Assembly (NCBI GenBank): GCA_947564735.1
Contig: CANOEC010000042.1
Coordinates: 1-34,519 of the forward strand
DNA length: 34,519 nt
Source of the DNA: an uncultured Lachnospiraceae bacterium
Lineage (GTDB): Bacteria; Bacillota; Clostridia; Lachnospirales; Lachnospiraceae
Reading direction: 5' to 3'
Part shown: piece after piece, positions 12,300 through 22,351 of the stretch
Numbering within the stretch: the first letter of the stretch is position 1
Layout of the letters: every line of letters begins with the position of its first letter
Notes under the pieces: model-generated
Seen by the model: the letters and a program-made list of their open reading frames with translations, nothing else
The model's database searches: none
What the model was told of the DNA's origin: nothing
Position numbers and translations under genes: made by a program

Positions 12300-15200
12300 T
12301 TAATTACCATATTCCTGTGCCAGTTTTTTCTGCGCGGTGGACAGCATCAGCTTAATCCGGTTGAGCTGGTTGACCTCGCTGGCGCCCGGATCATAGTCGA
12401 TTGCCACAATATTTGAGGATGGGAACCGTCTGCGCAGTTCCTTGATAACGCCTTTTCCCACCACGTGATTGGGCAGACAGCCGAAAGGCTGGGTGCAGAC
12501 GATGTTGCTGACGCCGCTGTGAATCAGTTCCACCATCTCGCCGGTCAGAAACCATCCTTCACCAGTCTGATTACCGATGTTGACGATAGGTTTTGCATAG
12601 TCTACGATGGTATAGATGCTTACCGGAGGCGTAAAATGGCGGCTTTTTGTAAATTCCTTGGCGGCAGCGCTGCGCATCTCTTCGAGCGCCCATATGGCGG
12701 CTCTGGAAAACAGGGATGCCTTGCGGGATGTACCCAGATAATCCGCTTTATATATTTGGTTGTAGAAGCAGTAGAGCATAAAATCCAGTAAATCCGGCAC
12801 AACCGCTTCGGCGCCTTCGGATTCTAACAGTTCTACCAGATGATTATTGGCTGCCGGGGCAAATTTAACAAGAATCTCGCCTACAATGCCAACTCTCGGT
12901 TTACGCAGCTCTTCGTGAATGGGAACAGCGTCAAATTCCCGTATCATCTGTACGCACATTTTACGGAAGGTGAAATAGTTCATATGTTTTCGCGATACAA
13001 ATTCGCGGCATTTTTGGGTCCACTGTGCATGAAGTGCGTTTACGGAACCGGACTCTGCTTCATAAGGGCGCATGCGGTAGACGCATCGCATAAGAACATC
13101 CCCGAAAAATGCGCTGTATGCAGCGCGCATGAGAAGCTCCAGATTCAAATGGAATCCGGGATTGCTCTCGATTCCGGCGAGGTTCAGCGAGATAACAGGA
13201 ATCTGCTGCATACCGGCTTTTTCAAGGGCACGCCGGATGAATCCCACATAGTTTGTGGCGCGGCAGCCGCCGCCGGTTTGTGTCATAATGATTGCCACTT
13301 TGTTTAGGTCATATTTGCCGGAAAGCAGGGCGTCCATAATCTGGCCAACCACCATTAAGGATGGATAACATGCGTCATTATTTACGTATTTCAATCCCAC
13401 ATCCACAGCATGTTTGTTATCGTTGCCAAGCACTTCAAAATGGTAGCCGCATGCCTCAAATCCTGCCTGCATAATCTCGAAGTGAATCGGAGACATCTGC
13501 GGACAGAGAATGGTGTACTCCTTGCGCATCTCTTCCGTGAATGCCACTTTGTTGATGGCGCTGGAACGGATAGTACGTTGCGCTTTTTTTTGCTCCCGCA
13601 CTTTAATGGCGGAAAGCAGGGAGCGAATTCTTATGCGGGCAGCGCCTAAATTGTTTACTTCATCAATTTTCAAGCAGGTATATATTTTGTCGGAGCCGGA
13701 GAGGATATCGTTTACCTGATCGGTAGTCACGGCATCCAATCCGCATCCAAACGAGTTTAGCTGGATTAAATCCAAATCTTCTCTTGTTTTCACATAGCTT
13801 GCGGCTGCGTACAGCCTTGAGTGATACATCCACTGGTCGGAGACAATCAGCGGGCGTTCCGGCTCGGCAAGGTGGGAGACAGAGTCCTCTGTCAGTACCG
13901 CAATATTGTAGGAATTAATCAGTTCCGGAATGCCATGGTTGATTTCCGGGTCAATATGATAGGGTCTGCCGGCAAGAACGATTCCGCGTATCTTCTTTTC
14001 TTCCATGAAACGAAGAACTTCTTCGCCTTTATCGCGCATATCCTGACGTGCCGCCGCCTGTTCTTCCCATGCAGCCGAAACGGCGTCTATGACTTCTGTT
14101 ACAGGCAAATCGGAAAATTCTTTCGTAAGGGCGGAGGTAACCGTCTGCAGGCTGCTGAATGCCATAAACGGATTACGGAATGCAACTTCGCCTCTGCCGA
14201 TTTCTTCCACATTATTTTTTATATTTTCCGAGTAGGAGGTGACGATAGGGCAGTTGTAGTGATTGTTCGCTTCATGGAACTCATCCCGCTCATAAAATAA
14301 CGCAGGATAAAAGATAAAATCAACTTTTTGGTTAATCAGCCATGCAACATGCCCGTGTGCAAGCTTTGCCGGATAACATGCCGATTCACTTGGGATTGAC
14401 TCAATTCCAAGCTCATAGATTTTACGGTTGGAGCTGGGAGAGAGTACAACACGATATCCGAGTCTGGTAAAGAATGTAAACCAGAACGGATAATTTTCGT
14501 ACATATTCAGGACTCTCGGAATGCCTACCGTGCCACGCGGTGCCTGCACGGCGGATAACGGTTCATAGGAAAAGAGCCTTTTGAGTTTATAATCATAGAG
14601 ATTGGGAATGCCATTCTCATTTTTTGTTTTGCCCAGTCCGCGTTCACAGCGGTTTCCGGAAATATACTGACGACCGCCTGTGAATTTGTTAATGGTAAGG
14701 CGGCAGTTATTTGTACAGCCTTTACACTTTGCCATGCTTGTCTCGAATTGCAGATTGGTAATCTGGTCAATGGTCAGCATGGATGTCTGATAACCTTCCT
14801 CGTAGTGCTCTCTGGCGATCAGCGCCGCGCCGAAAGCGCCCATGATACCGGCGATATCCGGGCGGACGGCGTGACAGCCGGCGATTTTCTCGAAACTGCG
14901 CAGTACGGCGTCATTGTAGAAGGTACCGCCTTGAACGACGATATGGCGTCCGAGTTCCGAGGCATCGGATACTTTGATAACTTTGAATAACGCGTTTTTG
15001 ATTACGGAGTAGGCAAGTCCGGCGGAAATGTCGGAGACGGAAGCGCCTTCCTTCTGTGCCTGTTTCACTTTGGAATTCATAAATACGGTACAGCGGGTGC
15101 CAAGATCAATCGGATGTTTGGCGAAAAGAGCGGCTTTGGCAAACTCCTCCACACTATAGTTCAGTGATTTGGCAAACGTCTCAATGAATGAACCGCAGCC

Positions 15201-16544
15201 GGAAGAACAGGCTTCGTTGAGTTGTACGCTGTCCACTGTCTGGTTTTTAATTTTAATACATTTCATGTCCTGACCGCCGATGTCCAGAATACAGTCTACT
15301 TCCGGATTAAAGAAGGCCGCCGCATTGTAATGCGCCACGGTCTCCACCTCGCCGTCGTCTAAGAGAAAAGCGGCTTTCATCAATGCCTCACCATAGCCGG
15401 TGGAGCAGGAACGGACAATCCTTGCAGTTTTCGGAAGAAGGGAGTGGATTTCCTTCAAAGAGCGGATAGCCGTTTTTAGCGGACTGCCGTCATTACTGCT
15501 GTAAAACGAATAAAGAAGGGAACCGTCCTCCCCTACGAGGGCGACCTTGGTCGTGGTGGAACCGGCATCGATTCCCAAAAAGCATCTGCCCTGATAGGAA
15601 GATAAATCAGCCGTTGTTACATGATGCGCGTTATGCATGGTGCAAAAATCGCTATATTCTTCTTCGGAGGCAAACAGAGGTTCCATACGCTCAACCTCAA
15701 ACTCCATTTTGATATCGGAGTTGAGTTTGCCGACCATTTCTTCCATTGTAAAATAAGTCTCTTTTTTCGCATTCAGCGCGGAGCCGATTGCCGCGAAAAG
15801 ATGAGAGTTATCGGCGTCGATGATATGTTCGTCGTCCAGCTTTAGCGTGCGGATAAAGGACTGTTTCAGTTCAGACAGAAAATGCAGTGGTCCGCCTAGA
15901 AAGGCGACATGCCCTCTGATCGGCTTGCCGCAGGCGAGTCCGCTGATGGTCTGGTTGACTACCGCCTGAAAAATGGAGGCGGATAAATCTTCTTTGGTAG
16001 CGCCTTCATTGATAAGCGGCTGGATATCGGATTTGGCGAATACGCCACATCTTGCCGCAATCGTGTATAGTGAGTGATAATTTTTGGCATACTCATTAAG
16101 CCCTGCAGCGTCAGTCTGCAGCAGGGAAGCCATCTGGTCGATAAACGAGCCGGTACCGCCGGCGCAGATACCGTTCATGCGCTGCTCCACGTTGCCGCCT
16201 TCAAAATAGATGATTTTTGCATCTTCACCGCCTAGTTCAATCGCAACATCAGTAGCCGGCGCAAGGGTCTGCAAGGAAGTAGATACAGCAATGACTTCCT
16301 GCACAAAGGGAACCTGCAGGTGGTTTGCGAGCGTCAGTCCCCCAGAGCCGGTAATCATCGGGTGCACGGTCAGATTGCCGAGCCTGTCATATGCCTTGTG
16401 TAATAAGTCGGAAAGGGTTTCTCTTATGTTAGCAAAGTGCCTTTGATAGTCGGAAAAGAGTATTTGCTGCTTATCATCCAAAACAGCGATTTTGACGGTA
16501 GTGGAACCTATATCAATACCGAGGGTATACTGTATATTACTCAT
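12300..16544 (-). CDS. Giant 2-hydroxyacyl-CoA dehydratase activator/reductase-like fusion protein
   Basis: This 1414-residue protein fuses parts that are separate in 2-hydroxyacyl-CoA dehydratase systems. Residues 5-260 and 322-580 are two BadF/BcrA/HgdC-type ATPase domains, each with a phosphate loop ([20 protein letters not shown]) and cluster-type cysteines (Cys127 and Cys166; Cys446/450 and Cys485). A Cys4 motif follows (Cys607, 610, 614, 633), then a DUF2229 domain (about 672-890), then a dehydratase-subunit-like region (about 1008-1385; Cys1014, 1059, 1094, 1350, 1356). Family knowledge suggests ATP-driven low-potential electron transfer through iron-sulfur clusters, likely oxygen-sensitive. 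The substrate is unknown and no CoA-transferase or dehydratase genes lie nearby. ATG 16544 is preferred; AAGGAG is 13 bases upstream, rather far, and a GTG at 16556 is too close to it. Confidence 0.88.
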
Positions 16545-16598
16545 TTCGGATATCACGCTCCTTATTTTATATATTAATAGGAAATTCTAAACCATGTC

Positions 16599-16740: not shown

Positions 16741-16791
16741 GTATTCAGTTTTGTATTTGAAAATACGTTGAGAAAGGATATGGTTATTAAA

Positions 16792-17661
16792 ATGAGTCCA
16801 TTTGAACGTAAATTTGGAAAATATGCGATTAAGAATCTGTCTTTTGTGCTGGTTCTCTGCTATGCCGTGGGTTATCTGCTGCAGATGCTTAATCCGATGC
16901 TGCTTGTTTATCTGATGCTTGACCCCTATGAAATTTTGCACGGACAGGTCTGGAGACTGGTTACATGGATTATGATTCCGCCTTCTGGCGGCAATATTTT
17001 CTTTACGCTGCTGATGCTGTATTTCTATTGTTCCATCGGTACGACGTTAGAGAGGACATGGGGAACGTACAGATATAACGTTTATCTGTTTCAAGGAATG
17101 ATTTTTACTGTTTTAGGCAGCTTCCTGCTGTTGGGATATCATTATCTTTTCCACGGAGACAGCATTGAGGCATTGGGAGCATTTAATTATTTTTATGCCT
17201 TCAACGGGACGTGGATGGCGTTCAGCACATATTATATCAATATGTCTATCTTCCTTGCCTTTGCCGCGACGTTTCCGGATGTACAAGTGCTTCTCATGTT
17301 TATCATTCCCATCAAGGTCAAGTGGCTTGGTATTATTTATGGCGTCATGCTTGTATTTGAATTTTTGCAGTATGGAGTAGACGGCAAGTTTGCCATTGCG
17401 GCGTCGCTGCTCAATTTCGTCGTATTTTTCTTAACGTCGCGCAATATGATGCATCTGAATCCCAAACAGATTCACAGACGACAGGAGTTTAAGCGGGATG
17501 TGCGCAGGAACACCGGCGTTACAAAGCACAAATGTGCAATTTGCGGCAGAACGGAAGTGGACAGCCCGAATCTGCAGTTCAGATTCTGTTCTAAGTGCGA
17601 TGGGAATTATGAATATTGTGAGGAGCATTTATATACGCATACGCATATCAAGAGGACATGA
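16792..17661 (+). CDS. Rhomboid-like membrane protein with Cys-rich C-terminal tail, probable pseudoprotease
   Basis: This 289-residue protein has about six hydrophobic helices (first at 14-32) with a rhomboid-type layout: WRLVTW at 54-59 after a short amphipathic stretch and GTTLERTWG at 83-91, which is where rhomboids place their L1/TM2 signature. I find no GxSG serine motif in the expected fourth helix (NGTWMAFSTYYINMS) and no matching catalytic His, so proteolysis is unlikely and a derlin-like or scaffold role is more plausible. The cytosolic tail (220-289) is basic and ends in a zinc-ribbon-like set: Cys248, 251, 266, 269, 276 and His279. ATG 16792 and ATG 16780 are both possible starts (AAAGGA is 13 or 1 bases away). 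It is first in a run with the sigma-like gene. Confidence 0.75.
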   Translation: MSPFERKFGKYAIKNLSFVLVLCYAVGYLLQMLNPMLLVYLMLDPYEILHGQVWRLVTWIMIPPSGGNIFFTLLMLYFYCSIGTTLERTWGTYRYNVYLFQGMIFTVLGSFLLLGYHYLFHGDSIEALGAFNYFYAFNGTWMAFSTYYINMSIFLAFAATFPDVQVLLMFIIPIKVKWLGIIYGVMLVFEFLQYGVDGKFAIAASLLNFVVFFLTSRNMMHLNPKQIHRRQEFKRDVRRNTGVTKHKCAICGRTEVDSPNLQFRFCSKCDGNYEYCEEHLYTHTHIKRT

Positions 17662-17755: not shown

Positions 17756-17794
17756 TAAGGAGCATAAAAAATAAAAATAATAGGGAACATATAT

Positions 17795-18535
17795 ATGAAT
17801 CGGGAAATTTTATTTGGAAAGACGCTGGAACAGGTGAAGAAGACTGCGAAGGAGCAGGGAAACTGTATTTCCAAAGAGCAGGTAGAGGCGGCGTTTTCGG
17901 AGCTTTCTCTGGGTGAGGAACAGCTTAATCTGGTCTATGAATATCTGCGCCGGCACAAAATCGGAATCGGGGAGCCGGTAGATTTGGATGAATATCTGGC
18001 GGACGAGGAGAAGGATTATCTGGACAACTATCTGACACAGCTCCATGGGCTGCCGGAGGTGTCTGAGGGAGAGCGGGAAGCAATCACGTTATCCGCCATG
18101 GCAGGGGATACGGATGCACAGGGCAGACTGACGGAGATTTATCTGCCAGAGGTTGCCGAGATTGCGAAGTTGTATGCCGGGCAGGGAGTTTATCTGGAAG
18201 ATTTGATCGGTGAGGGCAATGTGGCGCTGGCAATGGGGGTCACCATGCTTGGGGCGTTGGAGCGCGCATCCGAGGCGCAGGGAATGCTTGGCAGGATGAT
18301 GATGGATGCCATGGAAGAATATATTGCAGAAAATGCAAATGAGTCGAAGAAGGACAGGAGAATTGTCGAGAAAGTCAATAAGGTGGCGGATGCTGCCAGA
18401 GAATTGGCAGAGGAGCTTCACAGAAAAGTGACGGTGGAGGAATTGATGGAGGAATCCGGTTTTAGCCAAAAAGCGATAGAGGATGCCGTCCGTATGAGCG
18501 GCGGCAGGATAGAGGATCTGGAGGGAAAGGCTTAG
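17795..18535 (+). CDS. Sigma-70-like protein lacking DNA-recognition regions 2.3/2.4 and 4
   Basis: This 246-residue protein looks like the front half of a primary sigma factor. Residues about 12-58 resemble region 1.1, 72-112 region 1.2, and 113-150 regions 2.1-2.2 (LPEVAEIAKLYAGQGVYLED, then LIGEGNVALAMGV), the part that contacts the beta-prime coiled coil of RNA polymerase. The aromatic region 2.3/2.4 that melts and reads the -10 box is replaced by an Ala/Met/Glu-rich helix (157-180) with no tryptophan. A region-3-like helix-turn-helix (about 194-237) follows, and region 4 is absent. Inference: it may bind core polymerase without directing normal promoter recognition. The start has only a weak GGGAA site. 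It lies 133 bases after the rhomboid-like gene with no obvious promoter between. Confidence 0.75.
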   Translation: MNREILFGKTLEQVKKTAKEQGNCISKEQVEAAFSELSLGEEQLNLVYEYLRRHKIGIGEPVDLDEYLADEEKDYLDNYLTQLHGLPEVSEGEREAITLSAMAGDTDAQGRLTEIYLPEVAEIAKLYAGQGVYLEDLIGEGNVALAMGVTMLGALERASEAQGMLGRMMMDAMEEYIAENANESKKDRRIVEKVNKVADAARELAEELHRKVTVEELMEESGFSQKAIEDAVRMSGGRIEDLEGKA

Positions 18536-18544
18536 GGGATAACA

Positions 18545-18967
18545 GTGGATTATCAGGATAATGATTTTAAATATTTTATGCAGGATACGAGTTACGCCTA
18601 TCTTGGCGCGAGATACAGCTATGCGGAAATCATGGAACAGGAGATGGTTTCTTTTAAATACAAATGTATTGTGGAACATTATATTTTAAAAGATACCGAT
18701 CCGGAGACAACGCTGGAAAGTCAGTTGTATTATATGACTCCGGATCAGTTTTCGTATAGGACATATACGAAGCTTAAGGCAAAAGTGAAAGTCAGCATGA
18801 TGGTCCAGAAGAAAACCATGTTTGGCAGACAGAAGGTTGTTTATGCGAATAAAGTGCTGAAGCTGGAAGAACTGGTACAGATGAATCTTGCAAAAAAGAA
18901 ACAGTGCGGAATGATTATACAGGAACTGATATTGTCGAAACTGGCGATTATGGCGTTTAACGTATGA
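18545..18967 (+). CDS. Unknown protein linked to the sigma-like gene
   Basis: This 140-residue soluble protein is not one I recognise. It is rich in Tyr, Met and Lys, with an N-terminal acidic/aromatic part (MDYQDNDFKYFMQDTSYAYL) and a basic C-terminal half (about 76-120) carrying the word KAKVKVSMMVQKK. It starts with GTG, six bases after GGGG, nine bases beyond the sigma-like stop, so the two genes are almost certainly co-transcribed. No signal peptide or membrane helix is evident. Being tied to a sigma-like protein suggests a role with it (partner, modulator or shared regulon), but that is inference from position only. Confidence 0.7.
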   Translation: MDYQDNDFKYFMQDTSYAYLGARYSYAEIMEQEMVSFKYKCIVEHYILKDTDPETTLESQLYYMTPDQFSYRTYTKLKAKVKVSMMVQKKTMFGRQKVVYANKVLKLEELVQMNLAKKKQCGMIIQELILSKLAIMAFNV

Positions 18968-19138: not shown

Positions 19139-19162
19139 AATGTAAAATTCCCTTTTTACATG

Positions 19163-19205
19163 GAGCGGGCAAAGAGTAGTCGACGACTCTTTGCCCGTTC
19201 TTTTT
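19163..19205 (+). terminator. Strong intrinsic terminator
   Basis: A 15-pair GC-rich stem (19163-19177 with 19186-19200, one G-U) with an 8-base loop containing GTCGAC, followed by TTTTT. It terminates the rhomboid-like/sigma-like/unknown transcript or a separate short RNA. Confidence 0.88.
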
Positions 19206-19206
19206 A

Positions 19207-19354
19207 TGGCATAGGAAGATGCGCCAAAGAGTGGAAGAACCGAAGGTTCTTCCGAACAAAATGCCGAAGGCATTTTGTTCTGATGTAGGAAATTGCGACA
19301 AAGCGTGGAAGAACCGAAGGTTCTTCCGAACATAATGCCGAAGGCATTTTGTTC
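19207..19354. repeat. Double GAA-loop hairpin repeat, copies 2 and 3 in tandem
   Basis: Two units of 74 bases lie head to tail. Copy 2 has stems 19233-19241 with 19245-19253 and 19254-19265 with 19269-19280. Copy 3 has stems 19307-19315 with 19319-19327 and 19328-19339 with 19343-19354, the last with one T-T mismatch. All four loops are GAA. Each unit starts with a leader containing TAGGAA. Copy 2 begins at the T-tract of the terminator at 19163, and copy 3 ends one base before the -35 box of the next promoter. Confidence 0.88.
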
Positions 19355-19429: not shown

Positions 19430-22351
19430 ATGCAGATAGAACAATTACGTGCTTACACATTATTGGAGAAGAGAGAAATTAAGGAACTGAATTCCATCAG
19501 TTATTTGTTAAAGCATAATAAAACGGGGGCGAGAGTTGCGCTTTTGTCGAATGACGATGATAACAAAGTGTTCTATATCGGGTTTCGGACACCGCCAAAG
19601 GACAGCACGGGAGTGGCGCATATTGTGGAACATACCGTACTGTGCGGCTCGGATAAATATCCCGTCAAGGATCCGTTTATTGAACTGGCAAAGGGGTCGC
19701 TCAATACATTTCTGAATGCGATGACTTATCCGGATAAGACGGTATATCCTGTTGCAAGCTGCAATGACAAGGATTTTCAGAATCTGATGGACGTTTATCT
19801 GGATGCGGTCTTTCATCCAAATATTTACCATGAGGAGAAAATTTTTAAGCAGGAAGGCTGGCATTATGAGATGGAAAATGCCGGGGATGCGCTTACAATC
19901 AATGGCGTTGTTTACAGCGAAATGAAGGGAGCTTATTCTTCTCCGGATGATGTACTGTGGAGAGAGATTATGAATTCTCTCTATCCGCATACCGCTTATT
20001 CCGTAGAATCCGGCGGTGATCCGGATGTGATTCCGTCTCTTACTTATGAAGAGTTTCTTGCGTTCCATCAGAAATATTATCATCCGTCCAACAGTTATAT
20101 TTATCTGTACGGGGATATGGATATGGCAGAGAAATTACAGTATATTGATGAGGAGTATCTGTCTAAGTATGATGCGCTTGCAGTAGATTCGATGCTGGCG
20201 ACGGAGCCTGCGTTTGAGGAGACCCTGACGGTGGAGCGTGAGTACCCGATTATGGAGAGTGAATCGGAGCAGGATAATACCTATCTGGCATACAACATTT
20301 CGCTGGGCGTACAGCCGGACAGAAAGTTCTGTTATGCATTTTCGACGCTTGTGGACGTGCTATGTATGGTGCCGGGGGCACCGGTCAAGCAGGCGCTTCT
20401 GGACGCCGGAATCGGTACGGATTTGAACTGCGCCTATGATACCGGCGTGAAACAGCCTTATTTTTCCATAGTGGCGAAAAATGCCAACGCAGAACAAAAA
20501 GATGAGTTTGTCCGCATTGTGGAAGAAACTTTGGAGAAATTGTCGAAAGAGGGATTGGATAAGAAGGCAATCAAGGCAAATTTAAATAACAGTGAGTTTA
20601 AGTATAGAGAGGCGGATTTCGGCTCTTATCCGAAGGGACTCATGTATGGTCTGCAAATGCTGGAAACATGGCTGTATGACGATACGAAACCTTTTACCAA
20701 CGTGGAACTGCTGGAAACTTATCGGGAGTTGAAGCAGGCGGTGGACACTGCATATTATGAGGAGCTAATCCGTGATTATCTGGTGCACAATACACATAAA
20801 AGCGTGGTGGTGGTGAAACCGGTCAAGGGACTTACCGGCAGGAAGGAAAAACAGCTGGCAGAGAAACTGGCAGAAAAGAAGTCTGCTATGGGCAGTGAGG
20901 AAATCGAGCGGATTGTAAGGGAGACGGAGGAATTAAAGCAATATCAGGAGGAGCCAAGCAGCAAAGAGGCTTTGGAGAGGATTCCGCTTCTGTCCAGAGC
21001 CGATATGAAAAAAGAGGCGGCGCCTTACTATAATGAAGAGAAAAAAGTAGATGATACGGTACTGCTGTATCATGATATTTTTACGAACGGCATCGGCTAT
21101 CTGCGCCTGATGTTTGATTTAAGGCAGGTTCCTGAAGAGCTATTTCCTTATGTGGGAATCCTGAAGACGATTCTCGGACTGGTGAGCACCGAAAATTACA
21201 GTTACAGCGAGCTGTATAACGAGATTAATATGCAGACAGGAGGTATTGCGCCGGCAGTCAACACGTATACGGATGCGAGAGATTTGTCGAAATATACGGC
21301 GACCCTTGACTTAAAGGTTAAAGTACTGTATGAGAATCTTTCGCAGGCATTTGAACTGGCGCAGGAAATATTGACCCGTTCCGACTATACCGACGAAAAG
21401 CGCCTCTATGAACTGGTTGCCGAGGCGCGTTCCTGCAAGCAGGCGGATATGATGTCTGCGGGTCATACATTGGCGGCGGGAAGAGCATTGTCCTATCTGT
21501 CGAAGCCTGCCGTGGTGCTGGAGCATATGAACGGGATTCCTTTTTATCAGTTTTTGGAAGACTTGGAGAAGAATTTTGATGACAGGAAAGAGGGGCTGAT
21601 TCAGAATCTGCAGAGCGTTGTCCGTTATATTTTCCGCCCGGAGAACCTTCTGGTGGATTACACGGCGCAAAAAGAAGGCTTAAGCGGAATGGAAACGTTG
21701 ATACGGAAGCTGAAGGACAGTCTGTACACGGAACCGGTTGCAAAAGCAGGATATGACCCTTCTCCCGTAAAGAAAAACGAGGGCTTTATGACTTCGGCAC
21801 AGATACAGTATGTGTGCCGTGCTGGAAATTTTGAGGCAAAGGGACTGCCGTATAACGGCGCGCTCAAAGTGCTGCGCGTCATGATGGGATATGATTATCT
21901 CTGGACGCAGGTGCGCGTGAAGGGCGGCGCATACGGGTGCATGTGCAGTTTTGGCAGGTCTGGCGAGAGTTATTTCGTTTCCTATAGGGATCCGAATCTT
22001 AAGAATACAATTGACGTCTACGAGAATGCGGCGGATTATATCGAGCATTTTGAGGCGGACGAGAGAACCATGACCCAGTATATTATCGGTGCGATAAGCG
22101 AGATGGATATGCCGATGACGCCCGCCATGAAGGGAACCTATTCGCTCACCGGTTATATGACGCACTATCCCATTGAGAAGGTGCAGAAGAACAGGGATGA
22201 ACTGCTTGCGGCGGACGCGGATACGATACGCGGACTTGCCAGATATATCCGGGCTTTTATGGATGCGGATTGTCTGTGCGTGGTGGGAAATGAGGAAAAC
22301 ATCAAGGCAAACAGTGAATTGTTCGGTAAAACAGAGTATCTTTTTCATTAA
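19430..22351 (+). CDS. M16C zinc metallopeptidase (presequence protease/PreP-like)
   Basis: This 973-residue protein belongs to the pitrilysin/insulinase superfamily, subfamily M16C. The inverted zinc motif HIVEH supplies His64, catalytic Glu67 and His68, and Glu164 in VYSEMKGAYSS is the third zinc ligand. Length and the four-domain clam-shell plan (two halves joined by a hinge near 480-540, rich in Glu and Lys) match PreP, which degrades short unstructured peptides inside a closed chamber. There is no signal peptide, so it should act in the cytosol, perhaps clearing peptides left by other proteases. It has its own promoter and AAAGGAG, although 12 bases from the ATG. The GGAYG motif near 830 of the C-terminal half is also family-typical. 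Confidence 0.93.
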   Translation: MQIEQLRAYTLLEKREIKELNSISYLLKHNKTGARVALLSNDDDNKVFYIGFRTPPKDSTGVAHIVEHTVLCGSDKYPVKDPFIELAKGSLNTFLNAMTYPDKTVYPVASCNDKDFQNLMDVYLDAVFHPNIYHEEKIFKQEGWHYEMENAGDALTINGVVYSEMKGAYSSPDDVLWREIMNSLYPHTAYSVESGGDPDVIPSLTYEEFLAFHQKYYHPSNSYIYLYGDMDMAEKLQYIDEEYLSKYDALAVDSMLATEPAFEETLTVEREYPIMESESEQDNTYLAYNISLGVQPDRKFCYAFSTLVDVLCMVPGAPVKQALLDAGIGTDLNCAYDTGVKQPYFSIVAKNANAEQKDEFVRIVEETLEKLSKEGLDKKAIKANLNNSEFKYREADFGSYPKGLMYGLQMLETWLYDDTKPFTNVELLETYRELKQAVDTAYYEELIRDYLVHNTHKSVVVVKPVKGLTGRKEKQLAEKLAEKKSAMGSEEIERIVRETEELKQYQEEPSSKEALERIPLLSRADMKKEAAPYYNEEKKVDDTVLLYHDIFTNGIGYLRLMFDLRQVPEELFPYVGILKTILGLVSTENYSYSELYNEINMQTGGIAPAVNTYTDARDLSKYTATLDLKVKVLYENLSQAFELAQEILTRSDYTDEKRLYELVAEARSCKQADMMSAGHTLAAGRALSYLSKPAVVLEHMNGIPFYQFLEDLEKNFDDRKEGLIQNLQSVVRYIFRPENLLVDYTAQKEGLSGMETLIRKLKDSLYTEPVAKAGYDPSPVKKNEGFMTSAQIQYVCRAGNFEAKGLPYNGALKVLRVMMGYDYLWTQVRVKGGAYGCMCSFGRSGESYFVSYRDPNLKNTIDVYENAADYIEHFEADERTMTQYIIGAISEMDMPMTPAMKGTYSLTGYMTHYPIEKVQKNRDELLAADADTIRGLARYIRAFMDADCLCVVGNEENIKANSELFGKTEYLFH

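What the first reader, a model, noticed from the sequence alone, without database searches (positions are those of the whole stretch)
17795..18967. Primary-sigma-derived protein without promoter-recognition regions, co-transcribed with an unknown protein
The 246-residue protein keeps regions resembling sigma 1.1, 1.2, 2.1-2.2 and part of 3, but the aromatic 2.3/2.4 region is replaced by an Ala/Met/Glu helix and region 4 is missing. Region 2.2 is the main contact to RNA polymerase core. A protein that can dock on core but not read promoters could be a polymerase decoy, a sigma competitor or an anti-silencing factor. The 140-residue unknown gene begins nine bases later and may be its partner.
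Basis: partly seen in the sequence, partly recalled or inferred. Interest (0 to 1): 0.7.

Follow-up and report, generated by a model that had tools for sequence, protein, structure and literature searches.

The report
DNA-blind sigma-factor relative in Lachnospiraceae
Many gut Lachnospiraceae carry a conserved protein descended from the main sigma factor that seems to have kept most of the part that grips RNA polymerase but lost the parts that read promoter DNA, which suggests an undescribed way of controlling the polymerase.

Summary
Window 17795-18535 encodes a 246-residue protein homologous to primary sigma factors (regions 1.1, 1.2, 2.1-2.2, 3.0-3.1), with 2.3/2.4 replaced and 3.2-4 absent. 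It is not a broken rpoD copy: relatives form one clade apart from SigA (SH-aLRT 96), occur in 33 of 45 genomes of the window's family, and the window copy is under purifying selection (dN/dS 0.05-0.12). Among 188 class genomes outside that family no match rises above SigA level. Across 79 members, residues of sigma 2.2 that meet the beta' clamp helices are mostly kept (D403 78, E407 75, N409 78; Q406 only 40), DNA-contact residues are gone (W433 1, W434 0, Q437 3, T440 1, R441 2), and mean 2.3-2.4 charge flips from +3.5 to -4.8. AlphaFold2 gives a confident sigma-2 domain joined to region 3 by one 51-residue helix. The 140-residue neighbour is a shortened relative, without the FAD motifs, of the FAD subunit of molybdenum hydroxylases. 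It was found only beside this gene (16 of 16 genomes), but 31 of 47 genomes with high-scoring members show none. Best reading: a core-docking, DNA-blind sigma derivative that competes with or modulates SigA; docking and outcome are inferred, not shown.

The parts
17782..17786 (+). Shine-Dalgarno-like AGGGA, 8 nt before the ATG
   Evidence: read
17795..18535 (+). sigma-like protein, 246 aa, region 1.1-1.2-2-3.0/3.1, no region 3.2/4
17795..18004 (+). residues 1-70: region 1.1-like
   Evidence: Pfam Sigma70_r1_1 E 9.2e-3 here; 38 of 47 rows of A1, best 8.3e-8
18005..18109 (+). residues 71-105: region 1.2-like (boundaries set by me)
   Evidence: alignment to own SigA
18110..18238 (+). residues 106-148: regions 2.1-2.2, motif EDLIGEGN; 128-148 is the most conserved stretch (mean entropy 0.64 bits against 1.19-1.53 for the other five)
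18239..18340 (+). residues 149-182: Ala/Met/Glu helix in place of regions 2.3-2.4 (no WW, no Q437/T440/R441 equivalents)
18341..18502 (+). residues 183-236: region 3.0-3.1, joined to the previous helix without the RTIRIP loop of SigA
18534..18539 (+). Shine-Dalgarno-like AGGGGA overlapping the stop codon of the sigma-like gene
   Evidence: read
18545..18967 (+). 140-aa protein related to the second half of a FAD_binding_5 domain (molybdenum hydroxylase FAD subunit), without its FAD motifs
19162..19205 (+). terminator-like stem of 16 pairs, then a T run
   Evidence: -27.3 kcal/mol
16768..17661 (+). rhomboid-like membrane protein, conserved upstream neighbour (78 of 80 loci)
   Evidence: (Pfam Rhomboid E 0.53, not significant)
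19430..22351 (+). M16C/PreP peptidase, conserved downstream neighbour (71 of 80 loci)

Best explanation
A SigA paralogue that has become a DNA-blind RNA-polymerase-binding factor. Shown: common descent with primary sigma factors, shared loss of 2.3, 2.4, 3.2 and 4, conservation of most of the 2.2 beta'-contact residues, charge reversal on the former DNA face, purifying selection. Inferred: its sigma-2 domain docks on the beta' clamp helices of core, so that it keeps core from SigA or holds RNA polymerase in a non-initiating state, with the acidic 2.3-2.4 helix and the long rigid helix excluding or mimicking promoter DNA. Also inferred: the 140-residue protein is a clade-specific accessory, by ancestry a flavin domain that has lost its flavin site, which probably sets the activity or stability of the sigma-like protein.
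Against: Of the four named beta' contacts Q406 is Gly in the window copy and in 35 of 79 members (Gln in 40); L402 is kept in 0 of 79 (Glu in 45) and position 413 varies. PMC8321222 says that mutating such residues only weakens binding (passages), so the motif is no proof, and it could be kept for folding. The longer superpositions are poor (rmsd 10-11.5 A over about 160 residues), so the region-3 part cannot sit as in SigA. Some members lack region 1.1 (L135, L220, L231, L234). The sigma-like protein shows no extra co-evolution with the neighbour (partial r -0.095, p 0.97); it does with the M16 peptidase (0.466, p 0.001) and the BcrAD protein (0.213, p 0.003).
Confidence: 0.52

Rival explanations
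1. A sigma mimic that works like PhyR: it binds an anti-sigma or another sigma-binding protein, not RNA polymerase, and so frees a sigma factor.
For: Sigma-like surface without DNA reading; mimicry of this kind is known for PhyR, NepR and EcfG (PMC8999054, passages).
Against: PhyR mimics an ECF sigma. The retained residues include the beta'-contact ones. I did not search for an anti-SigA gene.
Confidence: 0.15
2. An exapted helical scaffold with no RNA polymerase role; region 2.2 is kept for folding.
For: Fast divergence (end branches to 1.83), varied genomic contexts outside the syntenic clade, Q406 and L402 changed. Near-invariant columns also lie outside 2.2 (F7, A18, L51, Y79, L117, V120, E216).
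Against: In A1 the only invariant columns are G141 and N142, with D136, L137, E140 and L145 nearly so: this is the contact helix in SigA, while the DNA face has changed.
Confidence: 0.2
3. Half of a split sigma factor like B. subtilis SigO-RsoA, region 4 being supplied by another protein.
For: Sigma regions can lie on separate proteins (SigO-RsoA, table passage in PMC10141391).
Against: Melting and -10 residues are also lost. The neighbour is not sigma-like: hhalign against the sigma-like profile 0.3%, against FAD subunits 90.7%.
Confidence: 0.06
4. A truncated or decaying rpoD copy.
For: It lacks the C-terminal part. One relative, in G075, has an in-frame stop well inside the gene. The TAA of the G055 match lies at its end, and L113 (G194) showed no stop when re-read.
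Against: dN/dS 0.05-0.12; one clade; no region 3.2-4 in 79 of 79 distinct members; conserved synteny.
Confidence: 0.02

Closest known systems
Primary sigma factor SigA/RpoD (group 1 sigma-70)
   Same: Region 1.1, 1.2, 2.1-2.2, 3.0-3.1; beta'-contact residues D403, E407, N409
   Different: No 2.3/2.4 aromatic or -10 residues, acidic instead of basic there, no RTIRIP loop, no 3.2 or region 4; a separate clade
SigO-RsoA two-subunit sigma (B. subtilis)
   Same: A sigma region-2 protein without region 4 (RsoA, recalled)
   Different: The pair is listed as 22.54 and 9.00 in the table of PMC10141391 (passage) and acts at promoters (recalled); here the DNA-reading part of region 2 is lost and the neighbour is not a region-4 protein
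PhyR sigma mimic
   Same: Sigma-like fold used without promoter reading
   Different: ECF-like domain fused to a receiver domain (recalled); here primary-sigma-like, with region 1.1 and no receiver match
FAD-binding subunit of molybdenum hydroxylases (Pfam FAD_binding_5), for the 140-aa protein
   Different: First subdomain with AGGT-D missing; at the TIGGN place 19 of 23 rows have [TS]-x-E-[STN] and none has GG; the window copy has no Pfam hit
MzaA of the MZA defence system
   Same: Weak shared sigma-2 stretch (NCBIfam E 4.2e-7; PADLOC E 0.0039)
   Different: Profiles of 726 and 683 positions, best stretches only 53 and 42 residues; other MZA genes were not sought

Membership tests
sigma-70 family, primary (group 1) sigma factor | Homology in regions 1.1, 1.2, 2.1-2.2, 3 | tested here: met
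   r1.1 and r2 are below Pfam's cut-off for the window copy alone
sigma-70 family, primary (group 1) sigma factor | Region 2.3 aromatic melting residues and 2.4 -10 residues | tested here: not met
   W433 1, W434 0, Q437 3, T440 1, R441 2 of 79
sigma-70 family, primary (group 1) sigma factor | Region 4 (-35 recognition, flap contact) | tested here: not met
   region 3.2-4 profile 0 of 107 rows (79 distinct members), 20 of 20 SigA-type; Sigma70_r4 matched 3 of 47 weakly (best 0.0024)
sigma-70 family, primary (group 1) sigma factor | Binds core RNA polymerase | not testable with these tools
   contact residues mostly kept, binding not measured
RsoA-like split sigma half | Functional region 2 plus a region-4 partner protein | tested here: not met
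   2.3/2.4 lost; the linked neighbour is not sigma-like; an unlinked partner was not sought
PhyR-type sigma mimic | Receiver domain | tested here: not met
   no receiver domain among the Pfam matches
FAD_binding_5 (140-aa protein) | Shared fold and profile | tested here: met
   no direct Pfam hit
FAD_binding_5 (140-aa protein) | AGGT-D and TIGGN FAD-binding motifs (motifs recalled) | tested here: not met
   the match starts at template residue 72, past AGGT-D; no GG at the TIGGN place in 23 of 23 rows

The most novel reading that the evidence does not exclude
A family-wide class of RNA-polymerase-bound factor: a SigA paralogue turned into a DNA-blind anti-sigma or clamp-binding factor that acts against or after initiation, coupled in one lineage to a flavin domain that lost its flavin.
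Probability: 0.38. Interest if true: 0.85.

Novelty: new variant of a known kind. Interest (0 to 1): 0.7.

Why it matters
Anti-sigma factors are usually unrelated to sigma (general knowledge). A sigma descendant kept through much of a dominant gut family, with most of the core-contact motif intact and the DNA face reversed, would be a direct, testable case of a paralogue turned antagonist and a new handle on transcription control in Lachnospiraceae.

Tried and rejected
Truncation or pseudogene: rejected. Phage origin: of 122 viral relatives 80 were kept; in 80 of 80 the best frame scores no better with the new profile than with the SigA profile. Defence gene: only MzaA matches. Neighbour as a region-4 or anti-sigma protein: no Pfam or PHROGs family and one chance-level NCBIfam match on its own, four PDB matches at E 0.5-1; the fold search gave the FAD-subunit answer. 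Recent duplication of a local FAD subunit: no PF00941 match in the own genome or in 12 genus relatives; 2 of 8 same-order genomes have one. Mirror-tree test for partnership (52 of 80 loci that held all five genes): no support. The first attempt at the own SigA took the wrong frame of locus L005 (DnaG-like, my label); redone. Literature: ten searches listed no paper that I recognised as describing this family; listings only, apart from passages of five papers; the library holds open-licence papers.

Full report
The observation. A 16-pair terminator-like stem follows the second gene at 19162-19201 (folded); the scan shows none between the genes, though the number of such sites in the region (3) is near the shuffled mean (2.2). 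The 246-aa protein is sigma-derived. It aligns to the own genome's SigA through region 3.1 with about the same length in 2.3/2.4.

How widespread. The window's genome belongs to a family coded f1; I take it for Lachnospiraceae because most record titles of the nearest loci say so (a few say Bacillus, Clostridium, Ruminococcus or just bacterium). In the genus sample 58 of 61 genomes have the protein (own copy 100%, the rest 62-84% identity), and the same 58 have the second gene, beside it on the same contig in 58 of 58 by reading the coordinates; G010, G022 and G057 lack both. With the single sequence at E<=1e-18, 81 of 250 family genomes match. With a 47-row profile (A1), 47 of 150 family genomes have a match above 190 bits, more than any SigA-sized one listed (best 180.0); two of the 47 (G169, G156) lie in frames of 358 and 374 and were not read; the list was cut, so other members are missed. 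In a set of 45 family genomes (44 genera, at least 95% complete) 33 have a sigma-like gene; of these the G075 copy holds an internal stop and the G097 copy is split between two contigs. The other 12 show no such match in the list, which was cut at about E 2e-11; of them only the G115 candidate was read in full, and it is SigA-like. In 196 class genomes (188 outside the family) no match outside the family was better than 6.7e-47, the level of SigA itself (own SigA 6.2e-48), and every listed one lay in a frame of 351 aa or more (list also cut).

One family, under constraint. A tree of 45 members (44 drawn at random plus the window), 20 SigA-type proteins and one SigF/G-like sigma puts the members on one side of a branch (SH-aLRT 96; quick method, long branches). 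A profile of members outscores a SigA profile on 107 of 107 rows (79 distinct sequences) and the reverse holds for 20 of 20 SigA-type proteins; these sets built the profiles or overlap with them, so this is a consistency check. dN/dS of the window copy against eight relatives is 0.05-0.12, with dS 1.1-1.9 and so near saturation; the neighbour gives 0.04-0.11.

What is kept and lost. On 79 members and 20 SigA-type proteins, with E. coli numbering carried over from the own SigA (numbering recalled), D403 is kept in 78, E407 in 75, N409 in 78, G408 in 72, L384 in 74, V387 in 69; Q406 in 40 (Gly in 35, the window copy among them); L402 in none. PMC8321222 (passages) names positions 403, 406, 407 and 409 as the residues of 2.2 that meet the beta' coiled coil and says mutants there only weaken binding. 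W433 is kept in 1, W434 in 0, Q437 in 3, T440 in 1, R441 in 2, P453 in 0. Mean net charge of 418-447 is -4.8 against +3.5, aromatics 1.4 against 6.9. In the 47-row alignment the only invariant columns are G141 and N142, both in 2.2; eleven are nearly invariant, four of them in 2.2. The own beta' subunit carries the clamp-helix sequence I know from other bacteria. A few members are shorter and lack region 1.1 (L135, L220, L231, L234).

Structure. AlphaFold2 on A1: pLDDT 94.4, pTM 0.76, with one helix 158-208 running through what is 2.3, 2.4, the RTIRIP loop and 3.0 in SigA. Foldseek and VIA-align find sigma factors; sigma-2 alone fits at 2.1-2.5 A (5h6x_B, 7xya_F), the longer alignments at 10-11.5 A, so the region-3 part is placed differently.

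Context. The pair sits in a stable chromosomal order in 80 loci: BcrAD-type activase (70), rhomboid-like protein (78), the second gene (79), M16C peptidase (71), DUF4349 protein (57), Era-like GTPase (57), RecO (34) (names of the last three from Pfam matches of the window genes, Era being my label); the loci end within 6 kb on either side, which explains some absences. Divergent members mostly lie elsewhere beside varied genes.

How it may work. The simplest reading is docking on the clamp helices without promoter reading: a competitor of SigA or a non-initiating RNA-polymerase partner. Docking, competition and the role of the neighbour are inference. Ten searches of the open-licence library listed no description that I recognised.

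Noticed in passing
window 19201-19348: Two tandem 74-nt palindromic repeats (86% alike); the core GGAAGAACCGAAGGTTCTTCC occurs 37 times in the genome (0 in the backwards control), several times in pairs about 75 bases apart: a dispersed REP-like element.
   Followed up: partly
window 12300-16556 (-): 1418-aa CoA-enzyme-activase-like protein (BcrAD_BadFG, DUF2229), conserved beside the operon in 70 of 80 loci.
   Followed up: no
window 16768-17661: Rhomboid-like membrane protein below Pfam's threshold, with a cysteine-rich C-terminal tail; conserved upstream of the pair.
   Followed up: no
window 19430-22351: The M16C peptidase shows the strongest partial distance correlation with the sigma-like protein (0.466, p 0.001, 52 loci); unexplained.
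   Followed up: no
   Followed up: no
L216: A 356-aa sigma-like member with a long acidic C-terminal tail.
   Followed up: no
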